Below the pieces are notes generated by a model. The model was given only the letters and a program-made list of their open reading frames with translations. It did not search any database and was not told the DNA's origin. Position numbers and translations under genes: made by a program. 64,000 bases of DNA from Ashinkailepas kermadecensis. Lineage: Eukaryota; Arthropoda; Thecostraca; Neolepadidae. Location: contig JAOTOM010001642.1 of the NCBI GenBank assembly GCA_034440615.1, positions 1 through 64,000 of the forward strand, in the 5' to 3' direction. Shown here piece after piece: positions 1,301-62,965 of this stretch (position 1 is the stretch's first letter; each line of letters starts with the position of its first letter).

Positions 1301-2235
1301 GTGAGCGCGTGACAGCCGGCGTGCAGATGACGCTCGCAGACAGGATTGGAAAAGCGTCCTTGTTCTGATTTGTGTCCGAAACGTAGCGTTCCCTGGAACA
1401 GCGCAGTCCATAGCTCATTCAGTGGCCGGTGTGCATTGTACATGATTACATTCGTACCAGTCTGGGAACAAACCTTCACACAGACTTATTCTGAAGTAGA
1501 TGTTGAAGTGATGAACCCAATATCGTCCCTGGATGACGATGGTGAAGTGATGGATCCACCATCGTCCCTGGATGACGATGGTGAAGTACTGGATGACTTG
1601 AGGGGGAGGGGTGGCAGAGGTGGCAGCGCCCCCTGCTTTGACGAATTTAGCATTGTCCCTATGGACGTTGAAGTATGAGAAGAATCGACATCAAGATGTC
1701 TCTTGCGACCAACTTTGGGACGATTTCTATGGTATTTCATACCAGTGATTAAAAGTGGCAGCGTCAGCTAAATTACCATCACAACGCATCTACCTTTAAT
1801 CTGTCGGGTATGCTTTCTTTATACGTATTGTGTAATCAACTTTCGTGCTAATATCTTCGTTTACATACATACATACATACATGAATGCATACATGAATCC
1901 ATACATGAATGCATATATGCATACATACGTACATACCTGTACCTGTATGTATTTTTGTATTTTACACAGACCTTATGTAGATATGCCGGCTGTGCCTATA
2001 TACCGTGGACCATATATACGCTTGGCGTCAGGTGTGTGTTGCTGTGATATATATCGACCATGTCCGTATACCGTGTCGACCATGTCCGTATACCGTGTCG
2101 ACCATGTCCGCCTGGCGTCAGGTGTGTGCTGCTGTGATACATATCGGCCATGTCCGTATACCGTGTCGACCATGTCCGCCTGGCGTCAGGTGTGTGTTGC
2201 GCTGGCGCTGACGCCGTGGACGCCCGCTGCCGCAG
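1301..2235 (+). other. BLTP2: BLTP2 intron with three simple arrays
   Basis: A GT-AG intron (GTGAGC at 1301, CCGCAG ending 2235) in phase 1; joining 1300 to 2236 rebuilds a glycine codon and gives the family sequence KGDCSVYVRTASKYDDC. It holds two copies of a 39-bp unit (about 1522-1598, ATCGTCCCTGGATGACGATG), a CATA/CATG-rich microsatellite (about 1864-1950), and a complex tandem repeat of CATGTCCG and GGCGTCAGGTGTGTG blocks (about 1990-2203) that stops only about 30 bases before the acceptor. Confidence 0.85.
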
Positions 2236-25197: not shown

Positions 25198-25220
25198 CGT
25201 CGAGACCAGTCTCGGGGCAG

Positions 25221-40585: not shown

Positions 40586-40674
40586 GAACGGATCCCGGTG
40601 ATGTCGGTCGGTGTTGGAAAGTTTCGGATGCTTTAAAGCAGACGTTGGCTGGGTCTGACTGATGCTGGTGTTAC

Positions 40675-42896: not shown

Positions 42897-43028
42897 TATT
42901 GTGTGTCTCCAGAAGAGTTTAATAGACTTCAATCATTTGCTATCAATATATTAACTCTATACCTGAAACAAAAGAGATCAGTGACAATGACAGGAGATAA
43001 CAAACAATGAACTGTGCAATACCAATGA
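42897..43028 (-). repeat. 5' LTR of Gypsy copy 2
   Basis: 132 bases, minus strand TCATTGGTATTGCACAG to GGAGACACACAATA. Very short for a Gypsy LTR. The outer boundary is fixed by the target duplication. Confidence 0.88.
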
Positions 43029-44511: not shown

Positions 44512-47500
44512 TAAGTAAGGTTTAGCACTAGCTTCCCATGTTTTTCTTAAGTTTTTTCCCATAGAAAATTATGTAGTTTTGTTCATGTTGTTTTATTCCT
44601 ACAGTAGCCTGTGATTAGCCATATTGCTGACAGATCGGATGATGCGCAATAGACAAGTAACTAAATATAGTCATGTGGCATTGCTGCTTTTTCAGAATGG
44701 AATGCCATCATCACACAACCGAGCAACAGCTTCACACCCACCCTCTTCTGTACTGAAGACATTGAAAACAGTCGGCTTCATTCTCCTGGCAGTGGTGTTT
44801 TTCACGATGGTGTCATGTAAGTCCTGGAACTCTGCTCACGTCACAGGAAATATTTCCTCCTGAAAAAAAAACGGTGATAGCAATGAATATCCATTAAAAT
44901 AGCAATGCTTATTCACACACTCTTGGCTTTTTGTGACATAGTGTAAAGCTCTGAATAATTTAAAGTCCATTTTCTTAGATAACAGAGGAAAATCAAATTA
45001 CCACAACTTGCTGTTTACAAAATATTCACAAGTTTCCTTAAATTGCATAGAGCAGGAAGTGTTAAGATTAACCATTTTTCTCCAAATGCCACATGGCATT
45101 TATCATGCATGGCAGCACATGCAACAACCAAGTGCTTGCAATGCTGCTGATGTGTCTTTTGGTATATCAAACACAAGGTGTATGTGAATGTTCAACATTT
45201 TGTGAACCATATAAAGTTGTTTTTCACAAATACAGCCAGCTGTCGTTTTGTTGAAAGACTACAGAGTGAACAGCTTCGTTGGTTTAACCTTGATTGTCTT
45301 GGGGGATGGGATGGGCAAGATTGGTTGATTATATTGGCCTACTAGCATTTTCACCACACAGTAAGCTTCCTCAGTAGCAATATTATACTACAAAACGCAC
45401 ACCTGGCGGATAGCATACAACCCACTTCATTGACCGCAGTGTCGTACAACAACACGTTGCCGTGGACGATGAGCCATGGCACCAACATGTTGGACCAGCT
45501 GGCGGCTCGGCTGGGGGTGCAGCAGGAGGTGCACGCCGTGGTGGTGGATGCTGGCAGTACCGGCACACGTGTGCTCGCCTTCACCTTCCATAGGAGCATC
45601 ATAGGTGAGCCGCGAGCGGTCCTCTAATGCCACCATGCTAGTGTCATTGGTGAGCTGTGGGTGGTCCTCAAATGCCACCATACTAGCGTCAGAGGTGAGC
45701 AGCGGGAGGTCCTCAAATGCCATCATAGGAGCGTCGTGGGTGAGCCGTGGGTGGTCATCAAATGCCACCATAGGAGCGTCTTAGGTCAGCCGTGGGTGGT
45801 CTTCAAATGCCAGTCAGCACCAGCGGTGAAAGTGATCATTGTGTGAAACATTCTGATCAGACCTTTTTGCTTAAACGCTAAGCCAGCCAACCTAATGGAT
45901 ATTATCTAATTTCATGCAAACGTTCATCATAACATCAGTGATACTAAATTCAGCCAGATGGCATGGCCTTTGACATTCAGCAAGACAGCACAGCCTTTGA
46001 TATTCAGCTACATTGCGCAGCCTTTGGAGTTCAGACAGATGACATGGCCTTTGACATTCAGTCACATGGCACAGCCTTTGTAGTTCAGCCAGATGACATG
46101 GCCTTTGACATTCAGCCACACAGCATGACCTTGGGCATTCAGTTACATGGCACAGCCTCTGGAGTTCAGCCAGATGGCATGGCCTTCGACATTCATCCAG
46201 ATTGTATGGCTTTCGACATTCAGCTACAGCATTTCGGCGTGATGGCCTTTCAATTGCGCTCTTTCAAGCTATGGGCTATAAGCCGACCTGTGGGCAGTTG
46301 CATACAACCGTTAAACTGTGCGTTTGTGTGTTGAAAAGTTCATTTGTGTGTTTAAAGGTTCGTCCTGATTTTCCAGATGGCAGCCTTAAGCTCAACAAGG
46401 AGCTCTTCAAGGAGGTGAAACCGGGGCTGTCATCTTACGTGAAGGATCCAACGGCGGTGAGTGTTACGAAAGGCTCACGCTCCGTTTACACTGTACACTG
46501 CTACGGTGCGTCGGCGACGCTGATGTTGTGAACTTTAACTCATGCGCCATTGGGGTGGACAGCCTAACGCACCCCACGGGCGGGGGCAGACACTGCCCCC
46601 TGCTTAGCTTGAAAAGTTGCAGGCCCATGTGGGCTGTATTTGATTGGCTGTAATAGCGCAAGTCTATTGTGGATGGCCTGAATATACGTCTTTGATGTCG
46701 GTGCTTTTGGCCGCATGTGATATGGGTCAACACGATGAGCACAGATAAGCCAAGTATATTGGCCTAAGTGTTGCATGTGACGTCATAGGTCAGTACACAG
46801 CTTAGAGGTTGACCTACTTGGCGAAGCTTCGATTTTAGTCAGCAGCACAGAGACCGAATTTGAGTGCCATCATGCGACATGCATCCTAAGATAGCCAAGA
46901 AAGGCATCTATGAGTAAAAATAAGATCGCGGTAATGATGGGTCACATGGTATTCTGAGATCAAATCTTGAATCTGCTCCTATACCAATGCGCACTGTGCA
47001 TGTTTCTTCACCAAATGTTGCCAGGAATCCAACAGACGCAGTACAACACCTGTCCGAGCACATTGTGGGTATATGCCCCCTTATTGTTCGGAAAATTTTG
47101 AGAATGCAAAACAAAATTGTAAAGGGCTGCGATGTTTCAAATAACGTCAAAGGCAAGTGCCGCGGACGCTGGCTCCATACTGACCGGAGACCGTGCGGCG
47201 GCGACGAGCGACACTCAATATCTTGCAATGCTTAAGCAGACCAACACTGGGAATTTGGCATGCCATATCTCAGCCATGTTGAAAAGATATCACTTGCAAT
47301 TTTCTATGGATATTCACAATCTGAGACAGAATCACATATATTCAGGTTTTGAAAGAAGTCAAAATAATTCATCAGCAAATTCAGAACAGGATATGTTTTA
47401 GCTTTGCCCATTTTGACCACCACGTTAAACAAGAAACATTAGGAGATGGAGGTGGCAGCATAATAGTCCATAGAATACACCCCGTAAAATTAACTGTCGA

Positions 47501-50500
47501 TTGGCGAAAGCTGATTGTTGATATCTTTGTTCCTCGAATGTTTGCGTTTTTCCGTACACACTTCCATTTCGTTCAAAAGTCTCTGGAGGTGACGTCACCA
47601 TAACGTTCCTAACGCACGACCCATGGTGAATTACAATTTAGTTTTTGGCTACAAGCTGTGGAATTGATGTGCGAACAAGTACTGAAAGCTCCAACTTGTG
47701 CCGCTCGTTGTCGAGTTACTAAAAAAGTTTCCATGAGCGGCAGATCCTGCCCCCCCCCTCCCCCAGTGGACCCGGTTTACTAGGAGTTGGTGTTACTTGC
47801 TGTGTTCTTATGTCTTGTGTATGCTTTATTCGTGTTGTGATACAGTACCCGATATATGTTGAGTAAAGGTCATCGCAGTATTTGTTTGTTTGTTTGTTTG
47901 TTTGTTGTTGCCACCGTGCCACGTCAGACTCCAGCACGCGAAGCACGCTGGTAGAGATTGGGCAGGCGCAGACGAAGGTCAGGAAAGCGCTGGCGAAGTT
48001 TGACGACGAAGGTCGGGCGGACGCAGGAGAAGCATGACAACCAATGTCGGACCGACACAGGAGAACCACGGATATTAATGTCGGGCCTTTACAAGTGAAG
48101 CACGACAACCAATGTCGGACCGACACAGGAGAACACGGAGATGAATGTCGGGCCTTTACAAGTGAAGCATGACAACGAATGTCGGACCTTTGCAAGTGAA
48201 GCATGGCAACGAATATCGGGCCTTTACAAGTGAAGCACGGCGGCGAACGTCGGGCCGGCACGGGATAAGCTCGGCGGCCGATGTCGGTGCAGTGCTGCTG
48301 CCAACATCAACAGTCGGTACGGCCTTGTCGCAGCGCGGCTGGTCGCGATGCGCGTGTGTCTCATTTCTCGGCAGCTCGGTACCCAACAGCGGTGATGAGC
48401 ACCGTATGGTGGTCGTATCACTAGGGCTTTGAATCACTTGCATTTTTCACTGTGAACGGAATTATCTTCCGTTTTGTTCCGTTTAAATGGCCGATCGCTG
48501 GGGATATGGCAGTCAGCTGCTGATTTGAAGTAAAGAAGGTATCGGTACGTTGGTGCTGTTTGTGTACGTAAGCCATTTCACTTCGTGTGAAATTATTCTC
48601 AATGGGAAGTCCGAAATATGCATGCTTGAAGATAAGAGTTATGCTCTTCTAAGTTGCAAATACTGAACTTGTTTTCCTTCCAGCTTTGGTCCACAGTGAA
48701 GAAATTCAGCTTTGTCCACCACTGACGGAAGTAGTTATAAGCGACTTATTGTCAGCGAAGGCCAGGTCCGTGCCGTGCCTCCTTGCCACTTCTACTTTCC
48801 CCAGCGAGTCTACCCTCCCCGCGAGGCACACCTTTACGTGGTGGCAGGATGTTGTGCACCGAGGATCAGCGGACGGTGAGGGCTGCTTATAAAGCACCGT
48901 TGCCGACCAAAAAGGAGGAGCCACACTAAGCGTTCCTTTTCCATTGGTCTCTTCCCATTCTAGTATCCACCCCATGCTAGCGTCCCTTTGTATGTCTTTC
49001 ATTGACTCCTGCAATACCAACCCTTTCTAGAATGATCAGGTAGGCCAGCTTCCTCTTCATCTTCGTTTCCTCTGGGTAGTCGCGCCCCTTCGGCCCGTCC
49101 ACCGAAGTTGACGAAGTCCTAGATGTTGAGATCCACTGTCGCACAGTGTCAGTTGCCATTGGGATGGGGTGGGTGGGGGTGGGAGGTGATCAACACGTCT
49201 CTTTGGTCCCGATATCCCGAAGGCACTGGCACGGCCCCATACGGGTTAGGTAGTGGTCGCGTCAGGTCATGTCTCTGGACTCTGGCCTGGTATCTGCTGG
49301 GCATCAGGCCATGCCTCTGGCCTCTGGTCTGGTGTCTGGTGTCTGCTGGGCATCAGGCCACGCCTCTGGGATCTGGCCTGGTGTCTGCTGGGCATCAGGC
49401 CATGCCTCTGGCTTCTGGCCTGGTGTCTGCTGGGCATCAGGCCATGCCTCTGGCCTCTGGCCTGGTGTCTGCTGGGAATCAGGCCATGCCTCTGACCTCT
49501 GGCCTGGTGTCTGCTGGGCATCAGGCCGTGCCTCTGGACTCTGACCTGGTGTCTGCTGGGCATCAGGCCGTGCCTCTGGCCTCTGGCCTGGTGTCTGCTG
49601 GGCATCAGGCCATGCCTCTGGCCTCTGACCTGGTGTCTGCTGGGCATCAGGCCGTGCCTCTGGACTCTGGCCTGGTGTCTGCTGGGCATCAGGCCATGCC
49701 TCTGGCCTCTGGCCTGGTGTCTGCTGGGCATCAGGCCATGCCTCTGGCCTCTGGCCTGGTGTCTGCTGGGCATCAGGCCGTGCCTCTGGACTCTGGCCTG
49801 GTGTCTGCTTGGCATCAGGCCGTGCCTCTGGACTCTGGCCTGGTGTCTGCTGGGCATCAGGCCATGCCTCTGGACTCTAGCCTGGTGTCTGCTGGACATC
49901 TGGCCATGCCTCTGGGCTCTGACATGGTGTCTGCTGGGCATCAGGCCATGCCTCTGGCCTCTGGCCTGGTGTCTGCTGGGCATCAGGCCGTGTCTCTGGA
50001 CTCTGGCCTGGTGTCTGCTGGGCATCAGGCCATGCCTCTGGCCTCTGACCTGGTGTCTGCTGGGCATCAGGCCATGCCTCTGGACTCTAGCCTGGTGTCT
50101 GCTGGGCATCTGGCCATGCCTCTGGGCTCTGACATGGTGTCTGCTGGGCATCAGGCCATGCCTCTGGCCTCTGGCCTGGTGTCTGCTGGGCATCAGGCCG
50201 TGCCTCTGGACTCTGACCTGGTGTCTGCTGGGCATCAGACCATGCCTCTGGCCTCTGGCCTGGTGTCTGCTGGGCATCTGGCCATGCCTCTGGGCTCTAA
50301 CCTGATGTCTGCCGGCCCGTGCCGCCGGGGTCAAGAGGTGGCCGACGGCGCAGTTTGGTTGGGGTGGTGAGCAGCTCTCTCCCCACCTGACCGTGGGAAA
50401 GCGCCCTGTCCCCATAGCTGTTCGGGTGCCTGACGTCTTCCCGGCGGCAGGATGCAGACGTCCCCCAGTAAGGCCCCAGCGTGGTGGGGTGTCACGAGGA

Positions 50501-53500
50501 GCCGAATATAAAAACAGCCACATGGTACCCCTCTCCCCACAAGCAAAGAATCTGATCCCTCTTGTAGGGATCAGATGTCGGACGGGCCGACCTCTTTAAG
50601 TGACTGGGCACTCAGCCAGTGGACCAGCGGTGGACCAGCGGCGCAACAACCGGTGGAGCAGCGGCGATGTACATACTCATGCTCCCCGACTTCTTGTTTG
50701 CAGAGGCTCACGGGGACAGAGGCAGCCTGCGAGCATGTCACCCTTCCAACGTCTGGATGACGGAAACCGATTTGGTACGGTTCTGATATGTGAACGGCTA
50801 AAAGTCGGTGTGTTTGAGGTTGAATCACACAAGGAGCCGGGCCAGCGAGTCCACCCGCGACCAATCGGCCTGAGAGGTTGGTGACGCTCCATGGCCTCGC
50901 AGTCGAATGTGTTGTAAAATAATCCCAATATTTTATTATTAGTGGTAGTGGGTGGTCATGACACCCACCTCCGTACTATGAGGGGTAGGCGGTGCTGTCA
51001 CAGTGCGAGCGGTAAGCAAGTCGGCTGTCGAGATGGTGTGCCGGGAACTGGACTCACAGCTGCAACCCAGTTACTGGTATGGCACCATACAGCCGTGATG
51101 TTATATCACAACGGTGTGATCGCATATCATGCCGGTCGGATATACAGGCGTGGTTTGGAGGGACGTAGGGAACCCTCCTTAAATGTCTGAATTGTCTGAG
51201 AAAATATGTTATTTTGGCACAAGTGGCCGCAAATGACAAAAAGTACACTGAATATACTCCTCGTAATCTGAGCTCTGGACCCCAGCCTGAGAGTTGGATC
51301 AGGACCGTAGCTGATCATTGGGCGCAAAATGACCACAGCAGTCGACGCGCCCTAAAGCCGAAATAACTAACTAAGTAGCTAATCATGGTGTCAGACCAGG
51401 ACCGTAGCTGATCGTGACATCAGATCAGGACCGTGGTTGATCATGGCATTACCGGATCAAGGCAATATCGAATCGGCCGCAATAGCGTTTGCATGCATGC
51501 TGATGGCGCTGGCAGATGTTTTTGTTTTGCACGAGCGCAGCTTCTCAGAAATCTGGTCAAGAATTATTGATCACGCAAGATAGTTATAGGCCGTTTCATT
51601 GCCAGAAACACCTTATAATTAATGTTTGAACGCATGTAAGTGTCGGAGGTCATCTATAAATTTCCGAGGGTCATGAAGACATCCGAAGATACAGCAAGCT
51701 ACAGCTACAACAATGGTCTACAGACGGGCTGTCGTACTCGGTACCAGAAGTCCTTTCACTTCATCTCATCTGGTACTGACTGGTCAGTCGGACGCACTCG
51801 GAAAACGGAGCGAAGCTGTGGAGTGTAATATTTAGACGAATCCTCCTCACCGTTTAGCACGTTTAAAAAGAAATACTTCTGCTGCCTATCGGAATGACTC
51901 GAGCTCTCTAACCAGCTAATCACATTGAAATTACGAGTGTCGGCGACCTTGTGTTTTTGTTTTGCGGCCCGCGACCTTTGGCATGGATCTGTATTGTGAT
52001 GCCTGTCTTGTCACGGGTGATTTGCACCTCCGCTGCGCGCCATATGCCACATCTCCTTTGTGGCCTGTACTGCTTTGTGGCCTGTACTGCTTTGTGGCCT
52101 GTACTGCTTTGTGGCCTGTACTGCTTTGTGGCCTGTACTGCTTTGTGGCCTGTACTGCTTTGTGGGCTGTGCCTAAATGCGCCTTGCACCTCTCCCGTAT
52201 GATCTGTACTGTGATGTGACTGTACCTCCGCTGTGCACCCTGTATCCCATCATCTGTGTCCTTTACTGTGCTGTGACCTGTCTGGCCCGTGTGACCTGTA
52301 CCTCTTCAGGTCACCTGCACTGTGTTGTGACCTGTATGTGGCCAGTGTGACCTGTACCTTTCCATATCACCTGTAATGCGTTGTGACCGGCACGTCTCCA
52401 TACCACCTGCACTGTGTTGTGACCTATGCATCTCCATATCACCTGTAATGTGTTGTGACCTGCACCTTTCCATATCACTTGCACTGTGCTGTGACCTGTA
52501 TCTGGCCAGTGTGACCTGTACCGTGCTATGACCTGTATCTGGTCCAGTGTGACCTGTACCGTGCTATGACCTGTGTGTGGCCAGTGTGACCTGTACCGTG
52601 CTATGACCTGTGTGTGGCCAGTGTGACCTGTACCGTGCTGTGACCTGTATCTGGCCAGTGTGACCTGTACCGTGCTATGACCTGTGTGTGGCCAGTGTGA
52701 CTTGTACTGTGCTATGACCTGTATCTGGCCAGTGTGACCTGTACCGTGCTATGACCTGTATCTGGTCCAGTGTGACCTGTACCGTGCTATGACCTGTGTG
52801 TGGCCAGTGTGACCGGCCGCTCGCCGTTCCGGCAGGCGGCGGCTCCTCTGCGCCAGCTGCTGGACGCCGCGCTGACGTTTGTGCCGGCGGCGGACGTGGC
52901 GCGCACGCCTCTGATCCTGCGCGCCACGGCCGGACTGCGCCTGCTGCCCGAGCCGCGGGCGCAGGCTCTGCTGGACACGGCGCGGGCCGTGGCCGAGGCC
53001 AGCGGCTTCCACGTGCGGCCCGACTCGGTGGCCATCATGTCCGGCACCGACGAGGGCCTCTTCTCCTGGTTCACCGTCAACTTCCTGCTAGGCACGTGCG
53101 GCGCCGCCGGCCGGTGCTGTCCGCTGTGCCGGTCGGGTGTCACGCAGAGTGCGTGCCGTGCCGATTCGCCTCGTGCATAAGCGGACAGGAAGCCGGGGAT
53201 TGTCGGCGAGCTGTTTGTACAGCTGCAGGAGCTCGTATTAGAGAGTTTCACAGGTTTCATTAGGCTGTTGTTGCCGCAGTCATTTTGTTTGAATGTCTTT
53301 GTTGAGTAGCGTGGTTTGTATGAAATCAATATTTTGGTTGGTTATTGGTTTTACGACACGTCGACCGTTGAGTCATGTAGCGTCGCCAATCTCTCACGCC
53401 GATTGGTCGCAGGCGAAGAGTAGCGACAGGTGAGACTCGAACCCACAACCTTTCGATTGTGAGACGAGCATCTTACCCCTAGACCACTCGTCCCCGAAAT

Positions 53501-56500
53501 CAATATTTTAACAAACACTGTCTTATGCAGGGAATCCAATGACAGAACCATAGGTACTTGTCGGGTTTGTGCAGCAGTATTTTTCAGTTCCTGCGCCTTC
53601 CGCGAATATAGCATTGACGCCAATGTGCTTGAAAACCCACCAGGCGATCATGCCTCGGTTATTGGACCTGTAGCTCACCGCGCTCCGTCAATCAGTTCCC
53701 GTGCTCCGGAACTCAGTTCGCGCGCTCCGCGACTCAGTTCCCGCGTTCCGTCATTGAGTTTCCGAGGTCGGGCTGGATTTGTTGCCGGAGCGGCACAGAC
53801 TGACCTGTGCCGTGGCTTCAGCTCGCCGCCGGCGAATGCTGACCGGTCGGGCGCCCGGTGCCGCACCACGCCGGTGTCGCCGGCACTTGGCTGTCGCAGT
53901 GGCACGCGTCGCTGCGACAGCCGTCCGCTGGTGGTGCGTTGTGCTGATGCGGACCGTTTGCGTTGCCGTGAGATGGTGACGTCGTGTGCCGCGCCTCCGC
54001 TGCTGGACACGCAGTGCTGCCGGGGGCGGGGCTGAGGCATCGCGTGCTTGCTCTGACGCCGTCCGTGCCCCGCAGACCGTCTGGGTGGTGACCCGGCGCA
54101 CTCGGTGGCCGTGTTTGACCTGGGCGGCGGCTCGACCCAGGTCACGTTCGCGCCGTCCCAGGCAGACACCGTGTACCGGGCGCCGGCCGGCTCCATAGTC
54201 GACGTGTCCGTCATGAAGGCCGACGTCGGCGTCTACACACAGAGGTCAGCCACGGGTCACTGGCCGCCCGGAGGTCAGTCCAAGGCCGCTGGTGGCCAGA
54301 GGTCAGTCCAAAGCCACCAATGGCAGTGGATCAGTCCAAGACCACCGGTGGTCAGGGGTAAGTCCAAGACCACCGGTGGTCAGGGGTAAGTCCAAGACCA
54401 CCGGTGGTCAGGGGTAAGTCCAAGGCCACCGGTGGTCAGGGGTAAGTCCAAGACCACCGGTAGTCAGGGGTAAGTCCGAGGCCACCTGTGGCCAGGGGTC
54501 AGTCCAAGGCCACTGGTGGCGAGGGTAAGTCCAAGACCACCGGTGGCCTGGGGTAAGTCAAAGGCCACCGGTGGCCAATGGTCAGTCCAAGGCCACCGGT
54601 GGCGAGGGTCAGTACAAGGCCACCGGTGGCGAGGCCACCGGTGACCGGGTCGTCCAAGGCCACCGGTGGCGAGGGGTCAGGCCACCTGACCGGGTCAGTC
54701 CAAGCCACCGGTGGCCAGGGTCAGTCCAAGGCCACCGGTGGCCAGGGTCAGTCCAAGGCCACCGGTGGCGAGGGTCAGTCCAAGGCCACCGGTGGCCAGG
54801 GGTCAGTCCAAGGCCACCGGTGGCCAGGGTCAGTCCAAGGCCACCGGTGGCCAGGGGTCAGTCCAAGGCCCCCGGTGGCCAGGGGTCAGTCCAATGCCAC
54901 CGGTGGCCAGGGTCAGTCCAAGGCCACCGGTGGCCAGGGGTCAGTCCAAGGCCACCGGTGGCCAGGGTCAGTCCAAGGCCCCCGGTGGCCAGGGGGTCAG
55001 TCCAAGGCCCCCGGTGGCCAGGGGTCAGTCCTGAGCCACGCGTCAGCCAGGTCAGTCTGAGGTCGCGGACCAGTCAGATACAAGTAAATCAGTAGAGAAA
55101 GGTCAGTCTAAGGTCATCGTCCACCTAGAGTTCGCAGTTACCACGTTGCCAGCAGCCAAAGGTGACCTGCGATAGTTTGGAAGGTGAGTGTGACTGTGAG
55201 CACGGGTCACTGAGCCGATCGATCTCCCCCTCACCCCCTAACCGCCTGCCCTACTCACCATCTCGCCTCACCACGCGCTCTGTGTGTTGTGTGAAGTGGC
55301 TGCTGGGCACTAGCTCGTGTGACTATCGGGGCTGCAGAGCACCTGGCACCAGCCTGCTGGTGGTGATTCGCCCCGCAACTAACACTGGCCCGCCGGCCTG
55401 CAGTCAACTTCTGTCTCTGCTGCTGCTTGGCGTCGGATGGACTGCCCGCTGAACACAGCCGGTCGTACCAATGGAAACGGGCCAACGGCCGTTGTGTGAC
55501 TGACTCTCCTCTGTCCCTCTTTTAGTAATCCGACTGACCAGAGACTCGTCTACAGTCAAAGGTAAACACACACACACGCCCACACGTCCACACGTGCATT
55601 GTCTTGCCTGTAGAGTGGTGCGATGCGGAGACGCTTGTGGCGAACAGCACGTGTGCAGTCGGCGCTGATCGGTGGGGCCATCCGGTGCTTGCTCCGCTCT
55701 CCTCGTGCCGGCCCTGCCATGCAGTCCTGTCGTTGTACACCCGGGCCGAGCCTTGTCGGCCTGTTGCTGGCACCGGAGCGAGCTTGCCGACAGGTGCTGG
55801 CTGCGGACCGACCGGCACCGAACACTATCGATCGGCAGATTGTTGTCCGTGCACTCTGGCCATTCCACAAAGTCATTGCACCTCTGGCCATTCCACCAAG
55901 TCATTCCACCAAGCGGGGCTGTAACGTCCGGACCGCCCGCGGAACCCGCCCATTCGGAGTGCAACCATTCCCAGGACCAATCACTGAACGTCCTGAGCCG
56001 GCCTTTGTCCAGCTATCAGTGTCGCAGCGTCACCCCTGGCTTCTGTAGTGTCTCAGCGTGACCACTGGCTTCTTCTGCATTATGCTGGTAGTGTCAGCGT
56101 GACCCCTGGCTTCTGTAGTGTGCTGGTAGTGTCTCAGTGTGACCCCTGGCTTCTGTAGTGTGCTGGTAGTGTCTCAGCGTGACCCATGGCTTCTGTAGAG
56201 TGCTGGTAGTGTCTCGGCGTGACCCCGGGCTTATGTAGTGTGCTGGTAGTGTCTCAGCGTGACCCCTGATTTCTGTAGTGTACTGGTTGTGTCGCAGCGA
56301 GCGGTGGGGCCGTGGTATACGCCGGTGTACGCCACCTCCTCGGCCGACCACCGTCTCCGTACTGGTTGTGTCGCAGCGAGCGGTGGGGCCGTGGTATACG
56401 CCGGTGTACGCCACCTCCTCGGCCGACCACCGTCTTCGTGAGGACGGTGAAGAAAACGAAGAATATGCAGGGAATGTGTGTGGTCCGTTGATCACACATA

Positions 56501-59500
56501 TAACCAGTTGAATTTGTCAAATGTTCACACTGCGCGCGATAGTTGGGTTGTGGGTTCCTGCGCTGGTGAAGGAGAGTTAATGTTGTGTTACGCTACATGC
56601 CTGCAGGTGATAGTAGGGGTGTCGGTACCTGCGCTGGTGTAGGAGAGTTAATGTTGTGTTACGCTACATGCCTGCAGGTGATAGTAGGGGTGTCGGTACC
56701 TGCGCTGGTGTAGGAGAGTTAATGTTGTGTTACGCTACATGCCTGCAGGTGATAGTTGAGGTGTCGGTACCTGCGCTGGTGTAGGAGAGTTAATGTTGTG
56801 TTACGCTACATGCCTGCAGGTGATAGTAGGGGTGTCGGTACCTGCGCTGGTGTAGGAGAGTTAATGTTGTGTTACGCTACATACCTGCAGGTGATAGTAG
56901 GGGTGTCGGTACCTGCGCTGGTGTAGGAGAGTTAATGTTGTGTTACGCTACATACCTGCAGGTGATAGTAGGGGTGTCGGTACCTGCGCTGGTGTAGGAG
57001 AGTTAGTGTTGTGTTACGCTACATACCTGCGGGTGGTAGTTGGGTGTGGGTACCTGCGCTGGTGAAGGAGAGTTAATGTTGTGTTACGCTACATACCTGC
57101 GGGTGGTAGTTGGGTGTGGGTACCTGCGCTGGTGAAGGAGAGTTAATGTTGTGTTACGCTACATACCTGCAGGTGATAGTTGGGGTGTGGGCTTGTGTGC
57201 TTGCGGAGGGAGCTAATGTTGTGTTGCGCTACATTCCTGCGGGTGGTAGTTGGGTGTGGGTTTCTCCTGTGGTGTATGGAGGGGTTAATGTTGTGTTGTG
57301 CTACATTCCTGTAGGTGGTAGTTGGGTGTGGGGTTCTGCTGTGGTGTATGGAGGGGGTAATGTTGTGTTGTGCTACATTCTTGCGGATGGTAGTTGGGTG
57401 TGGGTTTCTGCTGTAGTGTATGGAGGGGCTAATGTTGTGTTGCGCCACATGCGTTGTTCTCGAGTTCTGTACTCTCGTCATTATGTAGTACACATGGCAA
57501 TCCTCGTGACGGTATGCCGAGTGCACATGACCGTGTCAGTGTCAGTGTCATGACCGTGTCGGTGTCAGTGTCATGACCGTGTCGGTGTCAGTGTCATGCC
57601 CGTGTCAGTGTCAGTGGCATGACCGTGTCTGTGTCAGTGTCATGACCGTGTCAGTGTCAGTGTCATGACTGTGTCGGTGTCAGTGTCATGACCGTGTCAG
57701 TGTCAGTGTCATGACTGTGTCGGTGTCAGTGTCATGACCGTGTCGGTGTGCTCGGGTAGATATGTGGACCCTTGTGTTTATATTCTGAGATGCACATGTT
57801 GAGCCCCGTTTTGGAATGCCGCGGTACACTTGGATACTCGCGTGTCGATATGCCGGGGTGCACATGCCGAGCCCCGTTTTGGAATGCCGCGGTACACTTG
57901 GATACTCGCGGGTCGATATGCCGGGATGCACATGTTGAGCCCCGTTTTGGAATGCCGCGGTACACTTGGATACTCGCGTGTCGATATGCCGGGGTGCACA
58001 TGCCGAGCCCCGTGTCGTCATGCCGGGGTGCACATGCCGAGCCCCATGTCGTCATGCCGGGGTGCACATGCCGAGCCCCGTGTCGTCATGCCGGGGTGCA
58101 CATGCCGAGCCCCATGTCGTCATGCCGAGACACACGCGTGGGTGTGGTCCCAGCCAGGTGCAGTGTGGGCTGGTGGCCCGCCCTTATCGGCAGTCGACAA
58201 GGCACAGGCCTAGCAGCTGTGCTGGCGCATAATCCATCACTTCTGGCAGAGCGACAGACAGTTCAGGTCATGGGAGGGCGGGGCCTGGGAGCTCCGTTCA
58301 TGGTCAGGACACCTCACGACGCCAGGGTGCACGAGCTGACCGTGAGGACAGTGAGCACGATGCTGGTCACACGCCGGAGTGAGTGAGTCCTAGCGGCTGT
58401 AGTGACTGGATACAGCCGGCACTGGACGGCCAGCGGAGCTGAGGAAGCACGGCGAGCGGCGTGTGCCCGCGCACCGTTCAGGCCGGGCGGCCATCGGCAC
58501 CGACACTCACTGTTGTCGCTCAACGGCTCACCCTCCCGGCTTGGCCCGATACACTGCAGGGCTGAGCTTCTTTTGTGGAGTTCTGTGTTTGAAGAGGACA
58601 ATCTTTGGGCCGTGAAATTCGGGGAGGATCATTTTCATTTTGTTTCGATTTTGTTTGTTTTTTCTTCATCAGGAATTCCCTTTGGTACTTTCATTGATTG
58701 GGATATATAATTTCGATTTATGATTTCAAATGATGGGATGAAGAATAATAATTCGATCGAAACAAATCTAACAATGTGAGACATAGCCATATTTGTCCTG
58801 TTTGGGGATTGGAACGAACGTCCGACCATTTAGGCTTGGGCAGCTTTTTCACAGAAAAAAAATTAGTTTTTACTACTTCGGTGTCAAGCAGCCAGATGGA
58901 ACCTCCGCGCGAGGATGAGGCGCGGGCGATTTTCTGGCGGTTGCAGGACATGGCAGCTCTTGCAGTCGTGGTCCCACAGTGAAGACAGGGGCGGCGGTCA
59001 CTACGGCGGTCCGTGACCGAATTATGACGTCACCCCACGGTCGCTGTGGGAGCGGCCGGCCAATTGCCGTTGCGTTGCCGACTGGCTGGTCAACTGGGGC
59101 TGGACGGTAACCGGCCTGTCGTTGTGCAGCCACGGCCTGAACATCCACACTTTGAATTTCGTCTGGCGCGGCTCTAAGCTGCATGTGAATCCCAGCGATT
59201 ATTCCATGAGGATGCTGAAATTGGTATGTTAGTTGTGGATATCATTCACAGCCACCAGAAACCGACTGGCGCAAACATCTAGATGGCATAAATTCCATCG
59301 GAGCCCCGCATGAGCAAGCCATCGTCACACTGATCTCGGCCCGGGTCGGTCACGTTACCCACGCGTTACCTGCTTGTGTCCGACAACCACCTCCAGGCCC
59401 GGGTCGGTCACGTTACCCACGCGTTGCCTGCTTGTGTCCGACAATCACCTCTATAGCTAGCTAGTTCGCTGTGCTTTGCGCTTTGACGCCTGCCTTCCGC

Positions 59501-62500
59501 TACGCTACGATACGAAGCTTGCATTGCAAGGTACAACTTGTTGGTTCAAACTCGTCGCATCTCCCCTATTTGGTCATGCATCTTGAATGCTACTGTTGTT
59601 AACATTTGCGTTACTTGCTTTGCATGTAGTTTTCGCTTAATTGTCATCTCTAACCCTTGGCTGTTATAGTGTTTCCGTTAGCCCGCTGTATAAGGACGGT
59701 ACTCGTGGTGGTAGCGTCAATAGCATCTACTAATCAATCACCAAATGAGACTGCCCTCGTGGTGCATTGGCGCGGGCGCGAGCACCCATTGCAACGTGCA
59801 TTTATTGGGTGATCGTTAACACTAACATCAATTCGTTTCTAACAAAGTTAATGACTCGTCCTTGCTACTTCTTCAGTCAAATTGGCTAACTTACTAACAA
59901 ATGGGGAAGAGACACAACAATTAATTAACTGAACGCCGGTTGACACATGCAGGCAGTATACTGGAACATCTAAAGTCCGGGAAGCACGCTGTTCTGGTGA
60001 GACAAAGACAGCCAAAGTATTATTATCCGAAACCGAGGCTGTATGACGTGTTTACGTTAGTGTGATGGTTGATGGTTGTGTGACTAATGCGGCTACCGCT
60101 GACATGTTTTTGTGGCTTGTTTGTGTTTGTGCACACATTTACTAATTTCTGGGACGTGATGGGTGTTGTTTGTTGCGTCTTGGCGGCTGTGCGATGTGTG
60201 ACGTGTTGGCTGGTACGATGTTGACAGCTACCTGGGAGTGGGCCTGATGGCGGCCCGTCACAGTCTGCTGACGTGTTGGTCGGTGCGGTGTTGACAGTTA
60301 CCTGGGAGTGGGTCTGATGGCGGCCCGTCACAGTCAGCTGACGTGTTGGTCGGTGCGGTGTTGACAGCTACCTGGGAGTGGGTCTGATGGCGGCCCGTCA
60401 CAGTCTGCTGACGTGTTGGTCGGTGCGGTGTTGACAGCTACCTGGGAGTAGGCCTGATGGCGGCCCGTCACAGTCTGTTGACTGCCGGACTGCCCAAGGA
60501 CCAGCTGTCCGTCGTCAGCGATTGCGTCAACCCCATCGTCACCACCTCGTGGAGCTACGCCGGCAAGACGTACAACATCAGGTAGGCCGCCCGGTGACGC
60601 CGTGCTGACGTCACGCGTGACGTCAGCACGGCGTCGGCGCTGTGTCGGTCGGTTCGTGTCGTGTGGCTGCCGGCGGGTGTCGCCCGGCAGTGATACATTA
60701 TTCATGAAATAGGGTGGAGTGTACCACCTTCTGAACGGTGAATGGTCATCCTTCCCAATTTTGACACCCTACTGTAGACATTTTGACATCTCACACCTTA
60801 CGAAAAACTCATTATTTTATCACTGTCACTGGGTTGGAGTTGGCGGAGCGTACGACAGCCGGGAGAGTACACGCCCAGATGGGTGTGACGGCCGATTGGC
60901 ACGGGTCCGTCTGATGATGTCACCCGACGTCTGGTCGTGGTGTGTTGGCGGCTATTTCGACGGCTGTGAAGCGTCACGCGCCGGTGGGTGTGACGGCCGA
61001 TTGGCACGGGTCCGTCTGATGATGTCACCTGACGTCTGGTCGTGGTATGTTGGCGGCTATTTCGACGGCTGTGAAGCGTCACGCACCGGTGGCGCCATGA
61101 CGGTGGACGTCGCTGTGCCGGCCGGTGGCCATAACTACGGCCGCCGGTCTCTGGGGACCTCACAGTGTCACCAGACTTCAGGGTCTTCCCAGGGATCTTA
61201 CGGTGGCACTACAGAATCACAGTGTTACCGTACCGTACCTCATGGTCTCTGGGGATCCCACAGTGTCACTGATTAATTGTTCTATCATGATGTCAATGTG
61301 TATGTTTCGGCGCGTGCTGCAGTGCGTGTGTGTCGGAGACGCACACAGTACACCTGTCGACTCCCCCCCGCCCTCCAGCTGGGGCAGCCAGACAGCCTGT
61401 CTGGTTGCACATGTCGGGCACACCAGCTGTCGCTGGCTGCGGGCCGTGCCGCCGACTCTCCGGCTGGAGGGGGGGGGGGGGGGGCGCGTCTGACCGTGTC
61501 ACCACAGTCTGAGCTGTGGACGGAGGGGGAGCATCTGGCCGTGTCGCCACAGTCTGATGAGCCGTGTCACCACAGTCTGAGGAGCCGTGTCACCACAGTC
61601 TGAGGAGCCGTGCCACCAGTCTGAGGAGCCGTGTCGTCAGTCTGAGGAGCCGTGTCGTCAGTCTGAGGAGTCGTGTCACCACAGTCTAGGAGCGTGTGTC
61701 AGTCTGAGGAGCCGTCGTAGTCACCACGTCTGGGAGCCGGTCTCAGTCTGAGGAGCCGTGTCGTCAGAGTCGGTACCACAGTCTGAGGAGCGCAAGCTCA
61801 CAGACAGACACACGCAGGCGCAATCACACGTTGACCATGTCAAACTCACACTGACTGGGCCGGTCTTACACTAACGGAGGACAACTCACACTGACTGAGC
61901 CGGTCTCTCACTATTGGAGGACAACTCACGCTGACTGAGCCAAGCTCACACTGATTGAGGACAACCGAAGGTCACTTACGGTAAAATGTCCCTAGTCGAA
62001 AACCATACGAGAAGTTATGGACTTGTCAGAAAAGTGGCTAGCGCTGGGGAACGTTCATTCTTTTTTGTTTGTTATTTGTTTATTGGGTGGTTTACGACGC
62101 ACTTTATGCACAATCACGGCTAATGGCGCCGCTCCCACTTTTCGCCGATGGCCCGAGCTGTACGAGTGTTGAACCCGGGACCTTCGTATTCAGGTCTCAA
62201 CACCTTAACCACTCGGCCATCCCCGCACTTTTCGGTCTTTTCTGCTGCGCTGATATGCCCAACCAACAAGGAAAACTGAGCCTCAGTCCTGTGTATGTAT
62301 TCAGCTCAGCTATACTTGTATTCAGCTATACTTATTTGCCACCGTTTGGATGCACGGATAACCCTCCTAATACAGTTCGTTTGGTCAAGCGACATGGCCG
62401 GCATTGTTCTCTACCGTGACGGAACACTGCCGTCACACTGGTCCGGCAGTACAGGACTGGTCACAGCTGATATGGCGTCATACGCTTCTTCTGATGTCAC

Positions 62501-62669
62501 CCGGTTCGGCAGCGGACTGGACACCGATAAGAACTACAAGTTCATCAAGGGCAAGGGCGGCCTCATCGACAAGACGGAGCCTATTGTCGACTTCGTGCAG
62601 TGTTACCAGTCGGCGGTGCGCTTCCTCAGCGGGCAGGTGCACGCGCCGGAGGAGCTGCACACCCGGAAG
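44253..62669 (+). CDS. ENTPD5/6: ENTPD5/6-type nucleoside diphosphatase, exons 1-8 (3' end outside window)
   Basis: A GDA1/CD39-family enzyme of the ENTPD5/6 branch (Drosophila NTPase), which hydrolyses nucleoside diphosphates, chiefly in the ER/Golgi lumen. Predicted exons: 44253-44282, 44696-44816, 45440-45604, 46377-46456, 52836-53091, 54076-54244, 60438-60581, 62513-62669; the intron phases agree at every join (0,1,1,0,1,2,2, and a phase-0 end). Short basic N-terminus, one membrane segment (signal anchor), then apyrase regions 1 (DAGSTGTR), 2 (ATAGLR), 3 (SGTDEG) and 4 (DLGGGSTQ). Apyrase region 5 (the Tyr-rich block) is not in the window. The choice between ENTPD5 and ENTPD6 is not possible for an invertebrate single-copy gene. 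Confidence 0.93.
44458..44513 (+). repeat. (GTAA)n microsatellite in ENTPD intron 1
   Basis: About 13 tandem AGTA/GTAA tetranucleotides; each contains GTAAGT, an ideal donor core. Confidence 0.95.
44696..44816 (+). CDS. ENTPD5/6: ENTPD exon 2, membrane anchor
   Basis: Acceptor TGCTTTTTCAG, exon NGMPSSHNRATAS...VLKTLKTVGF then the hydrophobic ILLAVVFFTMVS; donor GTAAGT in phase 1. The basic KTLK before the hydrophobic run fits a type II signal anchor. Confidence 0.85.
45440..45604 (+). CDS. ENTPD5/6: ENTPD exon 3, apyrase region 1
   Basis: Begins after GACCGCAG; ends VVVDAGSTGTRVLAFTFHRS followed by donor GTGAGC at 45605, phase 1. DAGSTGTR is the phosphate-binding loop of the family. Confidence 0.94.
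45588..45812 (+). repeat. 45-bp minisatellite spanning the exon 3 donor
   Basis: Five donor-like sites exactly 45 bases apart (45605, 45650, 45695, 45740, 45785). Each unit contains a copy of the last ~17 exon bases (CCATAGGAGCATCATAG or close variants) joined to GTGAGC or GTCAGC and CGTGGGTGGTCCTCAAATGC. Confidence 0.93.
45950..46240 (+). repeat. 27-28 bp minisatellite in ENTPD intron 3
   Basis: About ten units on GATGGCATGGCCTTTGACAT with alternating TTCAGCCA variants. Ends about 135 bases before the exon 4 acceptor. Confidence 0.88.
46377..46456 (+). CDS. ENTPD5/6: ENTPD exon 4
   Basis: Acceptor GATTTTCCAG; encodes DGSLKLNKELFKEVKPGLSS (first D spans the join), YVKDPTA; donor GTGAGT at 46457, phase 0. 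The F..VKPGLS.Y block is characteristic of ENTPD5/6. Confidence 0.93.
46457..47944 (+). other. ENTPD intron 4, left part, no feature recognised
   Basis: Part of a 6.4-kb intron. A (GTTT)n stretch lies at about 47882-47905. No RNA gene or coding feature recognised. Confidence 0.5.
47945..48290 (+). repeat. ~38-50 bp minisatellite in ENTPD intron 4
   Basis: Variants of CGGGCCTTTACAAGTGAAGC followed by ACGACAACCAATGTCGG recur about eight times; units alternate between two lengths. Confidence 0.85.
48291..49259 (+). other. ENTPD intron 4, no feature recognised
   Basis: No repeat or coding similarity recognised. Confidence 0.4.
49260..50315 (+). repeat. 42-bp minisatellite, about 25 units
   Basis: Units GGCCTGGTGTCTGCTGGGCA + TCAGGCCATGCCTCTGGCCTCT. 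The 42-bp period is a multiple of three, so over 400 codons stay open on both strands (49123-50370 and 49267-50523); these frames are repeat artefacts inside an intron. Confidence 0.96.
50843..50935 (+). mobile_element. 5'-truncated SINE fragment
   Basis: CGCGACCAATCGGCCTGAGA, GACGCTCCATGGCCTCGCAG, then TGTTGTAAAATAATCCC: the 3' half of the SINE family seen at 43066 and 53336, more diverged. Confidence 0.75.
51319..51374 (+). mobile_element. 56-bp hairpin-tail retroposon, copy 5
   Basis: TGGGCGCAAAATGACC, AGTCGACGCGCCCTAAAGCC, GAAATAACTAACTAAG. Flanked by GTAGCTGATCAT (51307-51318) and GTAGCTAATCAT (51375-51386). Confidence 0.86.
52040..52170 (+). repeat. 18-bp minisatellite
   Basis: About seven near-identical units TGTGGCCTGTACTGCTTT. 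Confidence 0.97.
52200..52816 (+). repeat. 37-bp minisatellite ending at the exon 5 acceptor
   Basis: Units on GTGACCTGTACCGTGCTATG + ACCTGTGTGTGGCCA, more degenerate at the left. The last unit ends about 20 bases before the exon 5 acceptor at 52834-52835, and its variants supply repeated GGCCAG sequences. Confidence 0.92.
52836..53091 (+). CDS. ENTPD5/6: ENTPD exon 5, apyrase regions 2 and 3
   Basis: Acceptor CGTTCCGGCAG, phase 0. Encodes PLRQLLDAALTFVP, PLILRATAGLRLLPE (apyrase region 2), VAIMSGTDEGLFSWFTVNFL (apyrase region 3). The only end that keeps the frame into exon 6 is 53091, giving GCACGT as the donor, a GC-AG intron. An earlier acceptor at 52807 would shift the frame and was not used. 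Confidence 0.93.
53336..53495 (-). mobile_element. tRNA-derived SINE with 14-bp target duplication
   Basis: Reverse-oriented SINE of the 43066 family: B box GGGTTCGAGTCTCACC and tail ACCAATAACCAACC on the minus strand. Flanked by GAAATCAATATTTT (53322-53335 and 53496-53509). Confidence 0.94.
53675..53765 (+). repeat. Short ~25-bp tandem repeat
   Basis: Four imperfect units of CGCTCCG..ACTCAGTTCCCG. Confidence 0.7.
54076..54244 (+). CDS. ENTPD5/6: ENTPD exon 6, apyrase region 4
   Basis: Acceptor GTGCCCCGCAG. Encodes RLGGDPAHSVAVFDLGGGST (apyrase region 4), QVTFAPSQADTVYRAP, VSVMKADVGVYTQ. Donor GTCAGC at 54245, phase 2. Joined to exon 7 it gives the family's SYLG.GLM.AR block. Confidence 0.94.
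54241..55045 (+). repeat. 28-bp minisatellite starting at the exon 6 donor
   Basis: About 28 units of GTCCAAGGCCACCGGTGGCC + AGGGGTCA. It begins with the exon end itself (CAGAG|GTCAGCC is echoed by CCAGAG|GTCAGTCC). The left third carries GGGGTAAGTCC with perfect donor cores at 54358, 54386, 54414, 54442 and 54470. Confidence 0.93.
55046..56039 (+). other. ENTPD intron 6, no feature recognised
   Basis: Short CA tract at about 55564-55595 and a small duplication TGGCCATTCCAC (55857-55905). No gene. Confidence 0.4.
56040..56280 (+). repeat. 40-bp minisatellite
   Basis: About six units GTGTGCTGGTAGTGTCTCAG + CGTGACCCCTGGCTTCTGTA. Confidence 0.92.
56280..56438 (+). repeat. Perfect-looking 79-bp tandem duplication
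   Basis: GTACTGGTTGTGTCGCAGCG at 56280 recurs at 56359, with the intervening sequence almost identical to the following copy. Confidence 0.93.
56540..57455 (+). repeat. 71-bp minisatellite, about 12 units
   Basis: Units CCTGCAGGTGATAGTAGGGG + TGTCGGTACCTGCGCTGGTG + TAGGAGAGTTAATGTTGTGT + TACGCTACATG; right-hand units more diverged. Confidence 0.95.
57530..57755 (+). repeat. 23-bp minisatellite
   Basis: About ten units CATGACCGTGTCGGTGTCAG TGT with C/T and A/G variants. Confidence 0.92.
57788..58130 (+). repeat. 68-bp and 34-bp minisatellites
   Basis: Left: three 68-bp units with GCCGCGGTACACTTGGATAC. Right: four 34-bp units CATGCCGGGGTGCACATGCC + GAGCCCCGTGTCGT. They share GCCGGGGTGCACATG, so one derives from part of the other. 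Confidence 0.92.
58131..59334 (+). other. ENTPD intron 6, no feature recognised
   Basis: No gene or repeat recognised. Confidence 0.4.
59335..59455 (+). repeat. Two-copy 61-bp duplication
   Basis: GGCCCGGGTCGGTCACGTTA + CCCACGCGTTACCTGCTTGT + GTCCGACAACCACCTC occurs twice in tandem. Confidence 0.92.
59456..60199 (+). other. ENTPD intron 6, no feature recognised
   Basis: No gene or repeat recognised. Confidence 0.4.
60200..60483 (+). repeat. 70-bp four-copy array spanning the exon 7 acceptor
   Basis: Four copies with AG acceptors at 60226-60227, 60296-60297, 60366-60367 and 60436-60437. Each unit has about 25 intron bases (CGTGTTGGTCGGTGCGGTGT, TGACAG) and about 45 exon bases (CTACCTGGGAGTGGGTCTGA + TGGCGGCCCGTCACAGTCTG). 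Only the last copy runs on into the rest of exon 7. Confidence 0.94.
60438..60581 (+). CDS. ENTPD5/6: ENTPD exon 7
   Basis: Starts at the last acceptor of the 70-bp array; with exon 6 it reads SYLGVGLMAARHSLLTAGLP, then VSDCVNPIVTTSWSYAGKTY. Donor GTAGGC at 60582 in phase 2. Acceptors of earlier copies would shift the frame and meet a stop within about 25 codons. Confidence 0.93.
60582..62059 (+). other. ENTPD intron 7, repeat-rich
   Basis: Holds the inverted motif CGTGCTGACGTCACG around 60600-60630, a two-copy 105-bp duplication (GGGTGTGACGGCCGATTGGC at 60881 and 60986), a poly-G run (61470-61484) and the array below. No gene. Confidence 0.6.
61550..61795 (+). repeat. ~23-bp degenerate minisatellite
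   Basis: Units of AGTCTGAGGAGCCGTGTC(ACC)AC, with progressive decay to the right. Confidence 0.85.
62060..62230 (-). mobile_element. tRNA-derived SINE, second family
   Basis: Minus strand GGGGATGGCCGAGTGGTTAA (Ser/Leu-type A box), GGTCCCGGGTTCAACAC (B box), then CCATTAGCCGTGATTGTGCA and a tail CCCAATAAACAAATAACAAA. Different head and body from the 43066 family. Confidence 0.88.
62513..62669 (+). CDS. ENTPD5/6: ENTPD exon 8
   Basis: Acceptor GGTTCGGCAG; the first base completes a serine codon with exon 7. Encodes GLDTDKNYKFIKGKGGL and IVDFVQCYQSAVRFLSGQVH, then APEELHTRK; donor GTACGT at 62670, phase 0. The CY..V...SG.VH.PEEL pattern precedes apyrase region 5 in relatives; that exon is past the right edge. 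Confidence 0.92.
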
Positions 62670-62965
62670 GTACGTCCCAGTCCAAAGGAGCTGCACACCT
62701 GGAAGGTACGTCACGCTCCAGAGGAGCTGCACACCCGGGAGGTACGTCACGCTCCAGAGGAGCTGCACACCCCGGAGGTACGTCACGCTCCAGAGGAGCT
62801 GCACACCCGGGAGGTACGTCACGCTCCACAGGAGCTGCACACCCGGGAGGTACGTCACGCTCCACAGGAGCTGCACACCCGGGAGGTACGTTACGCTCCA
62901 CAGGAGCTGCACACCCGGGAGGTACGTCACGCTCCAGAGGAGCTGCACACCCGGGAGGTACACGA
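62646..62965 (+). repeat. 36-bp minisatellite spanning the exon 8 donor
   Basis: Nine donors exactly 36 bases apart (62670, 62706, 62742, 62778, 62814, 62850, 62886, 62922, 62958). Each unit has about 24 exon bases (CCAGAGGAGCTGCACACCCG + GGAG) and GTACGTCACGCT. The frame stays open to TGA at 62997-62999. Confidence 0.95.

What the first reader, a model, noticed from the sequence alone, without database searches (positions are those of the whole stretch)
45588..62965. Minisatellites seeded on exon-intron boundaries across one gene (and again in BLTP2)
In the ENTPD gene the arrays at exon 3 donor (45 bp), exon 6 donor (28 bp), exon 7 acceptor (70 bp) and exon 8 donor (36 bp) contain or start on the splice junction, and the 37-bp array stops about 20 bases from the exon 5 acceptor. 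BLTP2 shows the same at 1-564 (48 bp) and, adjacent, at 1990-2203. Tandem repeats normally avoid exon edges; five junction-containing arrays in 64 kb suggests a process that duplicates DNA at junctions, or selection for splice-site copies. The sequence shows the arrays; mechanism is inference.
Basis: partly seen in the sequence, partly recalled or inferred. Interest (0 to 1): 0.75.

Follow-up and report, generated by a model that had tools for sequence, protein, structure and literature searches.

The report
Tandem repeats copying barnacle splice sites
In a stalked barnacle, short tandem repeats fill much of the introns and in places have copied exon edges with their splice sites many times over; such structures were known from amphioxus, and here they look like a by-product of repeat growth rather than of a process aimed at splice sites.

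Summary
The arrays are real, and the window comes from a stalked barnacle (COX1 98% identical to Leucolepas longa). Four junctions lie inside arrays: ENTPD5 exon 3 donor, exon 7 acceptor, exon 8 donor, and one BLTP2 acceptor; two more arrays stop 21 and about 35 nt short of an acceptor. The exon 6 donor array starts 16-29 nt downstream, so "five containing" is strictly four. Orthologs place the used junction in the exon-side copy; 66 of 69 counted further copies, across 16 junctions, keep GT or AG. This is the "mirage" structure described in amphioxus. In 150 predicted junctions of 75 myosin exons from the same genome, 12 (8%) have a copy in the adjacent intron (2 of 48 best-supported ones), against 22.5% of deep-intron positions: junctions are depleted, not targeted. 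Yet array ends facing exons are 4.0 times denser (95% 2.4-6.1) at -20..+30 nt than inside introns, mostly in arrays without exon copies. Best reading: a minisatellite-laden genome whose arrays run up to exons and sometimes include the edge, tolerated because the exon-side copy is kept. A new lineage for a known kind; no RNA evidence.

The parts
45469..45604 (+).
   Evidence: spliced frame; ortholog alignment
45588..45812 (+). 45-bp array, 5 copies, contains exon 3 donor; the four further units hold GGTGAG or GGTCAG
   Evidence: TRF; copies and donor scores
46377..46456 (+). ENTPD5 exon 4
52486..52814 (+). 37-bp array ending 21 nt before exon 5 acceptor; no junction copy found
52836..53091 (+). 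ENTPD5 exon 5, ends with a GC donor (CTAG|gcacgt)
54076..54244 (+). ENTPD5 exon 6, donor AGAG|gtcagc
54260..55031 (+). 28-bp array just downstream of exon 6 donor; donor-like GAGGTCAG in its first units, similarity borderline
60199..60482 (+). 70-bp array, 4.1 copies, each with gttgacag|YTACCTGGGAGT; the last copy is the real exon 7 start
60438..60581 (+). ENTPD5 exon 7
62513..62669 (+). ENTPD5 exon 8, donor GGAAG|gtacgt in the first copy of the array
62640..62961 (+). 36-bp array, 8.9 copies; seven further units with RAG|gtacgt and a last one with gtacac; open and in frame with exon 8 throughout
1..564 (+). 48-bp array, 11.8 copies, cut by the contig start; units hold ggcag|GTGRAGAGTCT; the last copy holds the BLTP2 acceptor 540|541
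541..1300 (+). BLTP2 (KIAA0100/hobbit) exon VESLYSQLRQRD...
1999..2200 (+). 90-bp tandem repeat (about 2.2 copies, containing a 22-bp array) ending about 35 nt before BLTP2 acceptor 2236

Best explanation
These are 'mirages': minisatellites founded by tandem duplication of a segment that happens to span a splice junction, in a barnacle whose sampled introns are about one fifth minisatellite. Duplication does not aim at junctions. A junction-spanning duplication leaves one intact junction beside the exon body and places the other copies, with splice sites that look intact, inside the intron, so it does little harm as long as the spliceosome uses the exon-side copy. Since copies often have splice sites as good as the used one, position must help to decide; exon definition (short exons, introns of 0.8-6.4 kb) is the likely rule. 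Arrays otherwise run up to the minimal splice signals and stop there, because growth into the exon body is removed by selection. Shown: copies, intact GT/AG, ortholog-supported choice of the exon-side copy, depletion at junctions, pile-up of array ends. Inferred: founding mechanism, exon definition, selection.
For: Junction 24-mers copied in the flanking intron 12 of 150, deep intron 633 of 2815, exon-internal 16 of 600; raw HMM edges 11 of 150, best-supported junctions 2 of 48. Array coverage 8% at the junction, 14.5% at +16..30, 18.4% at +31..60, 20-23% beyond 100 nt. Ends facing exons: 7 against 2.4 expected at -20..0, 17 against 3.5 at +1..30, 2 against 3.5 at +31..60, similar with other TRF settings and with raw HMM edges; 4.0-fold at -20..+30, gene bootstrap 2.4-6.1, 14 of 17 contigs. 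Only 1 of 17 abutting arrays in the sample clearly carries a junction copy. Copies differ from the used junction at 7.5% of exon-side and 14.2% of intron-side positions, near the 1:2 expected if only the used exon is constrained. Ortholog colinearity. In both donor arrays scored, at least one further copy scores as high as or higher than the used donor.
Against: Static blind birth alone does not give the 4-fold pile-up of ends, and tandem expansion does not by itself eat into flanks, so the 'wall' needs edge duplication or another process. Spanning ends at -20..0 are themselves 2.9-fold over expectation (7 against 2.4, P 0.012; over -60..0 it is 11 against 7.0, P 0.10), which leaves room for some junction preference. 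In the 48 best-supported junctions the pile-up is weaker (5 against 1.9 at -20..+30). With stricter settings (4 or more copies) coverage is lower out to 100 nt (10.5% at +31..60 against 17.5% further in), so the 'runs up to the exon' picture is clearest for short arrays. The window has 4 of 15 junctions duplicated against 12 of 150 in the sample (Fisher P 0.04), though it was picked for this. GT/AG differ less than the rest of the exon side (3 of 138 against 62 of 828 positions), not expected if copies are neutral. No RNA from this species.
Confidence: 0.68

Rival explanations
1. A mutational process targets exon-intron junctions (replication, R-loop or repair at the junction) and founds arrays there.
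For: Array ends are 4-fold concentrated at -20..+30; spanning ends at -20..0 are 2.9-fold over expectation; the window shows four duplicated junctions of 15.
Against: Junction windows are duplicated 2.8 times less often than intron windows; no coverage peak at the edge; 16 of 17 arrays abutting at +1..30 show no clear junction copy.
Confidence: 0.14
2. Introns here grew from short ancestral introns by tandem duplication, so arrays start near exons simply because the ancestral intron was short.
For: Abutting ends occur at donors (8) and acceptors (9) alike, and coverage is nearly flat further in; the transposon-rich stretch 14-45 kb holds few arrays (1.25%).
Against: Ancestral intron lengths are not known here; no second barnacle genome could be read. 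With stricter TRF settings coverage is not flat near exons.
Confidence: 0.25
3. Splice-site copies are kept by selection, for redundancy or for alternative exon lengths.
For: 66 of 69 copies keep GT/AG and these positions diverge less than their flanks; the exon 8 array is open and in frame for all copies; Amphibalanus and a JGI sequence have 12 extra residues exactly at the exon 6/7 junction.
Against: Copies within an array are not independent; copies were counted only if at most 5 of 24 positions differ; junction duplication is rarer than intron background.
Confidence: 0.06
4. The arrays are coding repeats in extended exons.
For: The 36-bp and 48-bp units are multiples of three; the 36-bp array is open in frame, and the 48-bp array lies upstream of the exon without a stop in its frame (sequence).
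Against: Orthologs examined have no such repeats; the 7 BLTP2 orthologs checked continue upstream with another sequence, and ENTPD5 fits the barnacle orthologs' length at exon 8/9 only if the first 36-bp copy is used. The 70-bp and 28-bp units break frame.
Confidence: 0.03
5. Assembly artefact.
For: Tandem arrays are hard to assemble.
Against: Copies differ from each other (TRF match 81-96% in the junction arrays), arrays of the kind recur on many contigs, and an amphioxus case was upheld by re-sequencing (PMC3902484, passage).
Confidence: 0.03

Closest known systems
'Mirages' of amphioxus (Adh3, globins BflGb6/BflGb9, troponin C, PGBD5)
   Same: Minisatellite-like tandem duplications spanning 5' or 3' exon-intron boundaries, many copies keeping AG/GT (passages of PMC3087553, and PMC3902484).
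   Different: Other phylum (barnacle); a rate per junction and an intron background were measured here; RNA and haplotype data exist for amphioxus only.
Variable internal tandem repeats at exon-intron boundaries of human genes in segmental duplications (PMC2812944)
   Same: Minisatellite-sized units at exon-intron boundaries that can supply splice sites; 27 intron modifications reported (passages).
   Different: Variable repeats of recent primate paralogs that form novel introns and alternative transcripts; here conserved single genes keep the ancestral junction beside the exon.
Intron gain by tandem genomic duplication of AGGT
   Same: Tandem duplication supplies copies of splice signals (passages of PMC3443670).
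   Different: There an exonic duplication creates a new intron; here existing junctions are copied into existing introns, and no new intron was shown.
Ordinary intronic minisatellites
   Same: Unit size, copy number and divergence; most arrays here are of this kind (22% of sampled intron).
   Different: In the junction arrays the unit includes an exon edge and its splice site.

Membership tests
mirage minisatellites | tandem repeat unit spans an exon-intron boundary | tested here: met
   4 of 15 window junctions, 12 of 150 sampled
mirage minisatellites | both 5' and 3' boundaries affected | tested here: met
   donors and acceptors
mirage minisatellites | many copies keep AG/GT splice signals | tested here: met
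   66 of 69 copies
mirage minisatellites | mature mRNA is normal, exon-side copy used | not testable with these tools
   no RNA of this species; ortholog colinearity agrees
mirage minisatellites | length polymorphism between haplotypes or somatic | not testable with these tools
   no second haplotype seen; the other PF01150 locus aligns to this one only in dispersed repeats and is taken as a paralog
intron gain by AGGT tandem duplication | a new intron bounded by duplicated AGGT inside a formerly continuous exon | not tested
   no intron presence/absence comparison was possible
junction-targeted duplication | junctions duplicated more often than other intron DNA | tested here: not met
   12 of 150 against 633 of 2815

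The most novel reading that the evidence does not exclude
Tandem duplication is the main way introns of this barnacle have grown, outwards from short ancestral introns, which leaves arrays flush with exons and turns some 4-8% of splice junctions into rows of similar splice sites. Such rows would be a standing source of exon-edge change: in Amphibalanus use of a downstream copy may have lengthened ENTPD5 exon 6 by 12 residues.
Probability: 0.22. Interest if true: 0.75.

Novelty: new member of a known kind. Interest (0 to 1): 0.48.

Why it matters
In the library searched, mirages by name appear only for amphioxus, and a related case for human duplicated genes. Finding junction-copying arrays at 4-8% of sampled junctions in a crustacean shows that they are not a cephalochordate peculiarity, and gives a natural test of splice-site choice: rows of similar donors (in one myosin gene a 39-bp array of 27.6 units, of whose copies 17 within 700 bp were examined and 16 keep GT), where homology points to one end being used. 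It also offers a system in which to watch exon edges and intron length change.

Tried and rejected
Rejected: the chance argument on raw overlap alone (arrays cover 38.6% of the ENTPD5 stretch), because it ignores exon constraint; replaced by junction-against-intron tests. Rejected: abutting arrays as decayed mirages (1 clear case of 17 in the sample; exon 6 of ENTPD5 borderline, one of 18 foreign arrays scoring higher). Rejected: C4175 as the other haplotype of ENTPD5; in the blastn table only dispersed repeats align. Led nowhere: COX1 translated on the wrong strand; wrong coordinates; L014-L017 were fetched and not used. Junctions in the sample were predicted with splice-site weights recalled from general knowledge; raw HMM edges gave similar results. 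Of 78 myosin matches I left out C3826 (lone match, not fetched), C4137:200867 (not fetched) and C2400 (single exon), leaving 75. In some searches the C2400 exon (1.9 kb) was counted as intron background, which slightly lowers that background; it was masked. The 138 kinase places were not used. BLTP2 acceptor b was tested at 2235; its first exon base is 2236. On checking I found that one search had listed a human case (PMC2812944), now read in passages; because of it I lowered interest from 0.52 to 0.48.

Full report
What the window is. It is the first 64 kb of contig C1145 (75,124 bases) of a 907.7-Mb eukaryote assembly in 4689 contigs. The mitochondrial COX1 on contig C223 is 98% identical to Leucolepas longa, 91% to a Balanomorpha cluster and 89% to Lepas and Scalpellum, so the animal is a stalked barnacle near Leucolepas, a vent genus by recall. 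A search for papers on vent barnacle genomes listed mitochondrial and phylogeographic work and two other barnacle genomes, no nuclear genome of this group (listing only).

The gene models. The ENTPD gene is ENTPD5-like. Six exons join without a stop and the seventh is open in the fitting frame. The protein aligns over its whole length with Pollicipes pollicipes ENTPD5 (85%), an unnamed JGI sequence (79%) and Amphibalanus amphitrite (75%), with no gap at any junction against Pollicipes. In the JGI and Amphibalanus sequences there are 12 extra residues exactly at the exon 6/7 junction (VYSQ-SQPSDSQLVYSR-SYLG and VYSQ-SRRSNDRVVYAR-SYLG). The near-repeat of VYSQ as VYSR or VYAR suggests that a tandem copy of the exon end became exonic; this is inference. 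The JGI sequence sits on a 1894-base contig too short for introns of this kind, so it is probably a transcript, and that it is a barnacle is inferred from its similarity. The BLTP2 exon starts at 541: the 7 arthropod orthologs checked read K followed by VESLY, VEELY or IDELY at that place, with a different sequence before it, so the array upstream is intronic even though it is open in frame.

The arrays. Copies of the junction-centred 24-mer lie in the adjacent intron at exon 3 donor, exon 7 acceptor and exon 8 donor of ENTPD5 (3 of 12 junctions) and at one BLTP2 acceptor (1 of 3 tested). By simple recalled weights some copies are as good as the used donor: exon 3 used 4.9, copies 2.9, 5.7, 2.6, 1.2; exon 8 used 5.5, further copies one at 5.5, six at 4.6, one at -0.2; exon 7 and BLTP2 acceptors are nearly identical in all copies. 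So strength alone can hardly select the used copy; by homology the used copy is the one next to the exon body. Exon 6: the array starts 16-29 nt after the donor and similarity is borderline. Exon 5: the array stops 21 nt short and no junction copy was found. BLTP2 second exon: a 90-bp repeat stops about 35 nt short.

Is it more than chance? One first-order shuffle has essentially no arrays (1 row in the 146-kb sample, none in the window), so the arrays are not chance. Their position is another matter: arrays of period 10 or more cover 15.7% of the window and 38.6% of 45588-62965, and 374 of 1382 deep-intron windows of ENTPD5 (27%) have a copy nearby, against 3 of 12 junctions. To get a rate for the genome I used myosin-head matches (78), fetched 75 exons on 17 contigs, predicted 150 junctions and ran TRF. 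Introns are 22.3% array, exons 2.6%, junction bases 8%; coverage rises to 18.4% by +31..60 and 20-23% beyond 100 nt. The direct test without TRF agrees: 12 of 150 junction windows have a copy within 500 bp of the intron, in 12 of 17 contigs; 633 of 2815 deep-intron windows do (22.5%); 16 of 600 exon-internal windows do. With raw HMM edges it is 11 of 150; for the 48 junctions best supported by an adjoining exon, 2 of 48. Junction against intron: odds ratio 0.30, P 6e-6, treating windows as independent, which they are not within arrays. So junctions are protected, not targeted. The window (4 of 15) is richer than the sample (12 of 150), Fisher P 0.04, but it was chosen for this feature.

The result against my reading. 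Array ends facing the exon are not spread evenly. They number 7 against 2.4 expected at -20..0, 17 against 3.5 at +1..30, then 2 against 3.5 at +31..60 and 5 against 4.6 at +61..100. The excess at -20..+30 is 4.0-fold (gene bootstrap 2.4-6.1; 14 of 17 contigs) and is similar with other TRF settings and raw HMM edges; in the 48 best-supported junctions it is 5 against 1.9. A static model in which arrays are founded evenly and merely forbidden from exons does not give this. I tested whether the abutting arrays are decayed junction copies: 1 of 17 clearly is. I therefore favour arrays filling introns up to the splice signals over arrays born on the junction. With stricter settings (4 or more copies) coverage is still low at +31..60 (10.5% against 17.5%), so larger arrays keep more distance. 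How arrays come to end at exons (duplication creeping at array edges, or introns that were short when the arrays began) is open.

Copies. Across 16 junctions with copies there are 69 copies (within 700 bp, at most 5 of 24 mismatches); 66 keep the GT or AG. They differ from the used junction at 62 of 828 exon-side positions (7.5%) and 98 of 690 intron-side positions (14.2%), about the 1:2 expected if both copies drift on the intron side and only the spare one on the exon side. GT/AG differ at 3 of 138 positions; this is lower than the exon side, and I cannot exclude weak selection for it, but copies in one array share ancestry.

What is known. Tandem repeats spanning exon-intron boundaries are called mirages in amphioxus: Adh3, globins, troponin C and PGBD5 (passages of PMC3087553 and PMC3902484). 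Those passages report undisturbed splicing, length instability, and a model of intron gain from mirages. In human genes of segmental duplications, variable tandem repeats at exon-intron boundaries gave 27 intron modifications (passages of PMC2812944). Searches for minisatellites at exon-intron boundaries, mirages, crustaceans and barnacles listed no crustacean or barnacle case that I could recognise from titles and abstracts; subscription papers are not held. PMC3443670 (passages) reviews intron gain by tandem duplication of AGGT, a related but different event. For the barnacle Capitulum mitella repeats of only 3.53% are reported (passages of PMC8416341), by other methods; for Sacculina 58% (passage of PMC9582164).

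Limits.

Noticed in passing
window 53091-53092: ENTPD5 intron 5 has a GC donor (CTAG|gcacgt), which frame and orthologs fit.
   Followed up: partly
window 14000-45000: Transposon-rich stretch with only 1.25% minisatellite coverage against 38.6% in the ENTPD5 gene beside it; arrays seem to avoid, or predate, the transposons.
   Followed up: partly
window about 21400-26500 and 38200-42900: Two similar retroelement-like stretches in opposite orientation with broken frames (seen in the ORF list only).
   Followed up: no
window about 15450-16900: Reading frames that look like a Penelope-type element (reverse transcriptase and GIY-YIG-like motifs, by recall).
   Followed up: no
window 12959-13546, minus strand: Frame resembling a PPPDE/DESI-type peptidase next to a CA-rich repeat (by recall, no search).
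   Followed up: no
G000:C1145:71656-73410, minus strand (outside the window): Three protein-kinase matches in one 1152-aa open frame just downstream of ENTPD5.
   Followed up: no
P0122 and P0123 against window exon 6/7 (54244, 60438): Twelve extra residues exactly at this junction in Amphibalanus and in a JGI sequence, ending in a near-repeat of the exon end.
   Followed up: partly
L028, L033, L080 (contig C4219): In one myosin gene three predicted acceptors each have a long array ending 7 nt upstream of the exon.
   Followed up: no
G000:C223 (39,202 bases) and C1390 (L013): Mitochondrial contig with a second partial cox1 stretch, and a cox1 fragment in GC-rich DNA that looks nuclear.
   Followed up: no
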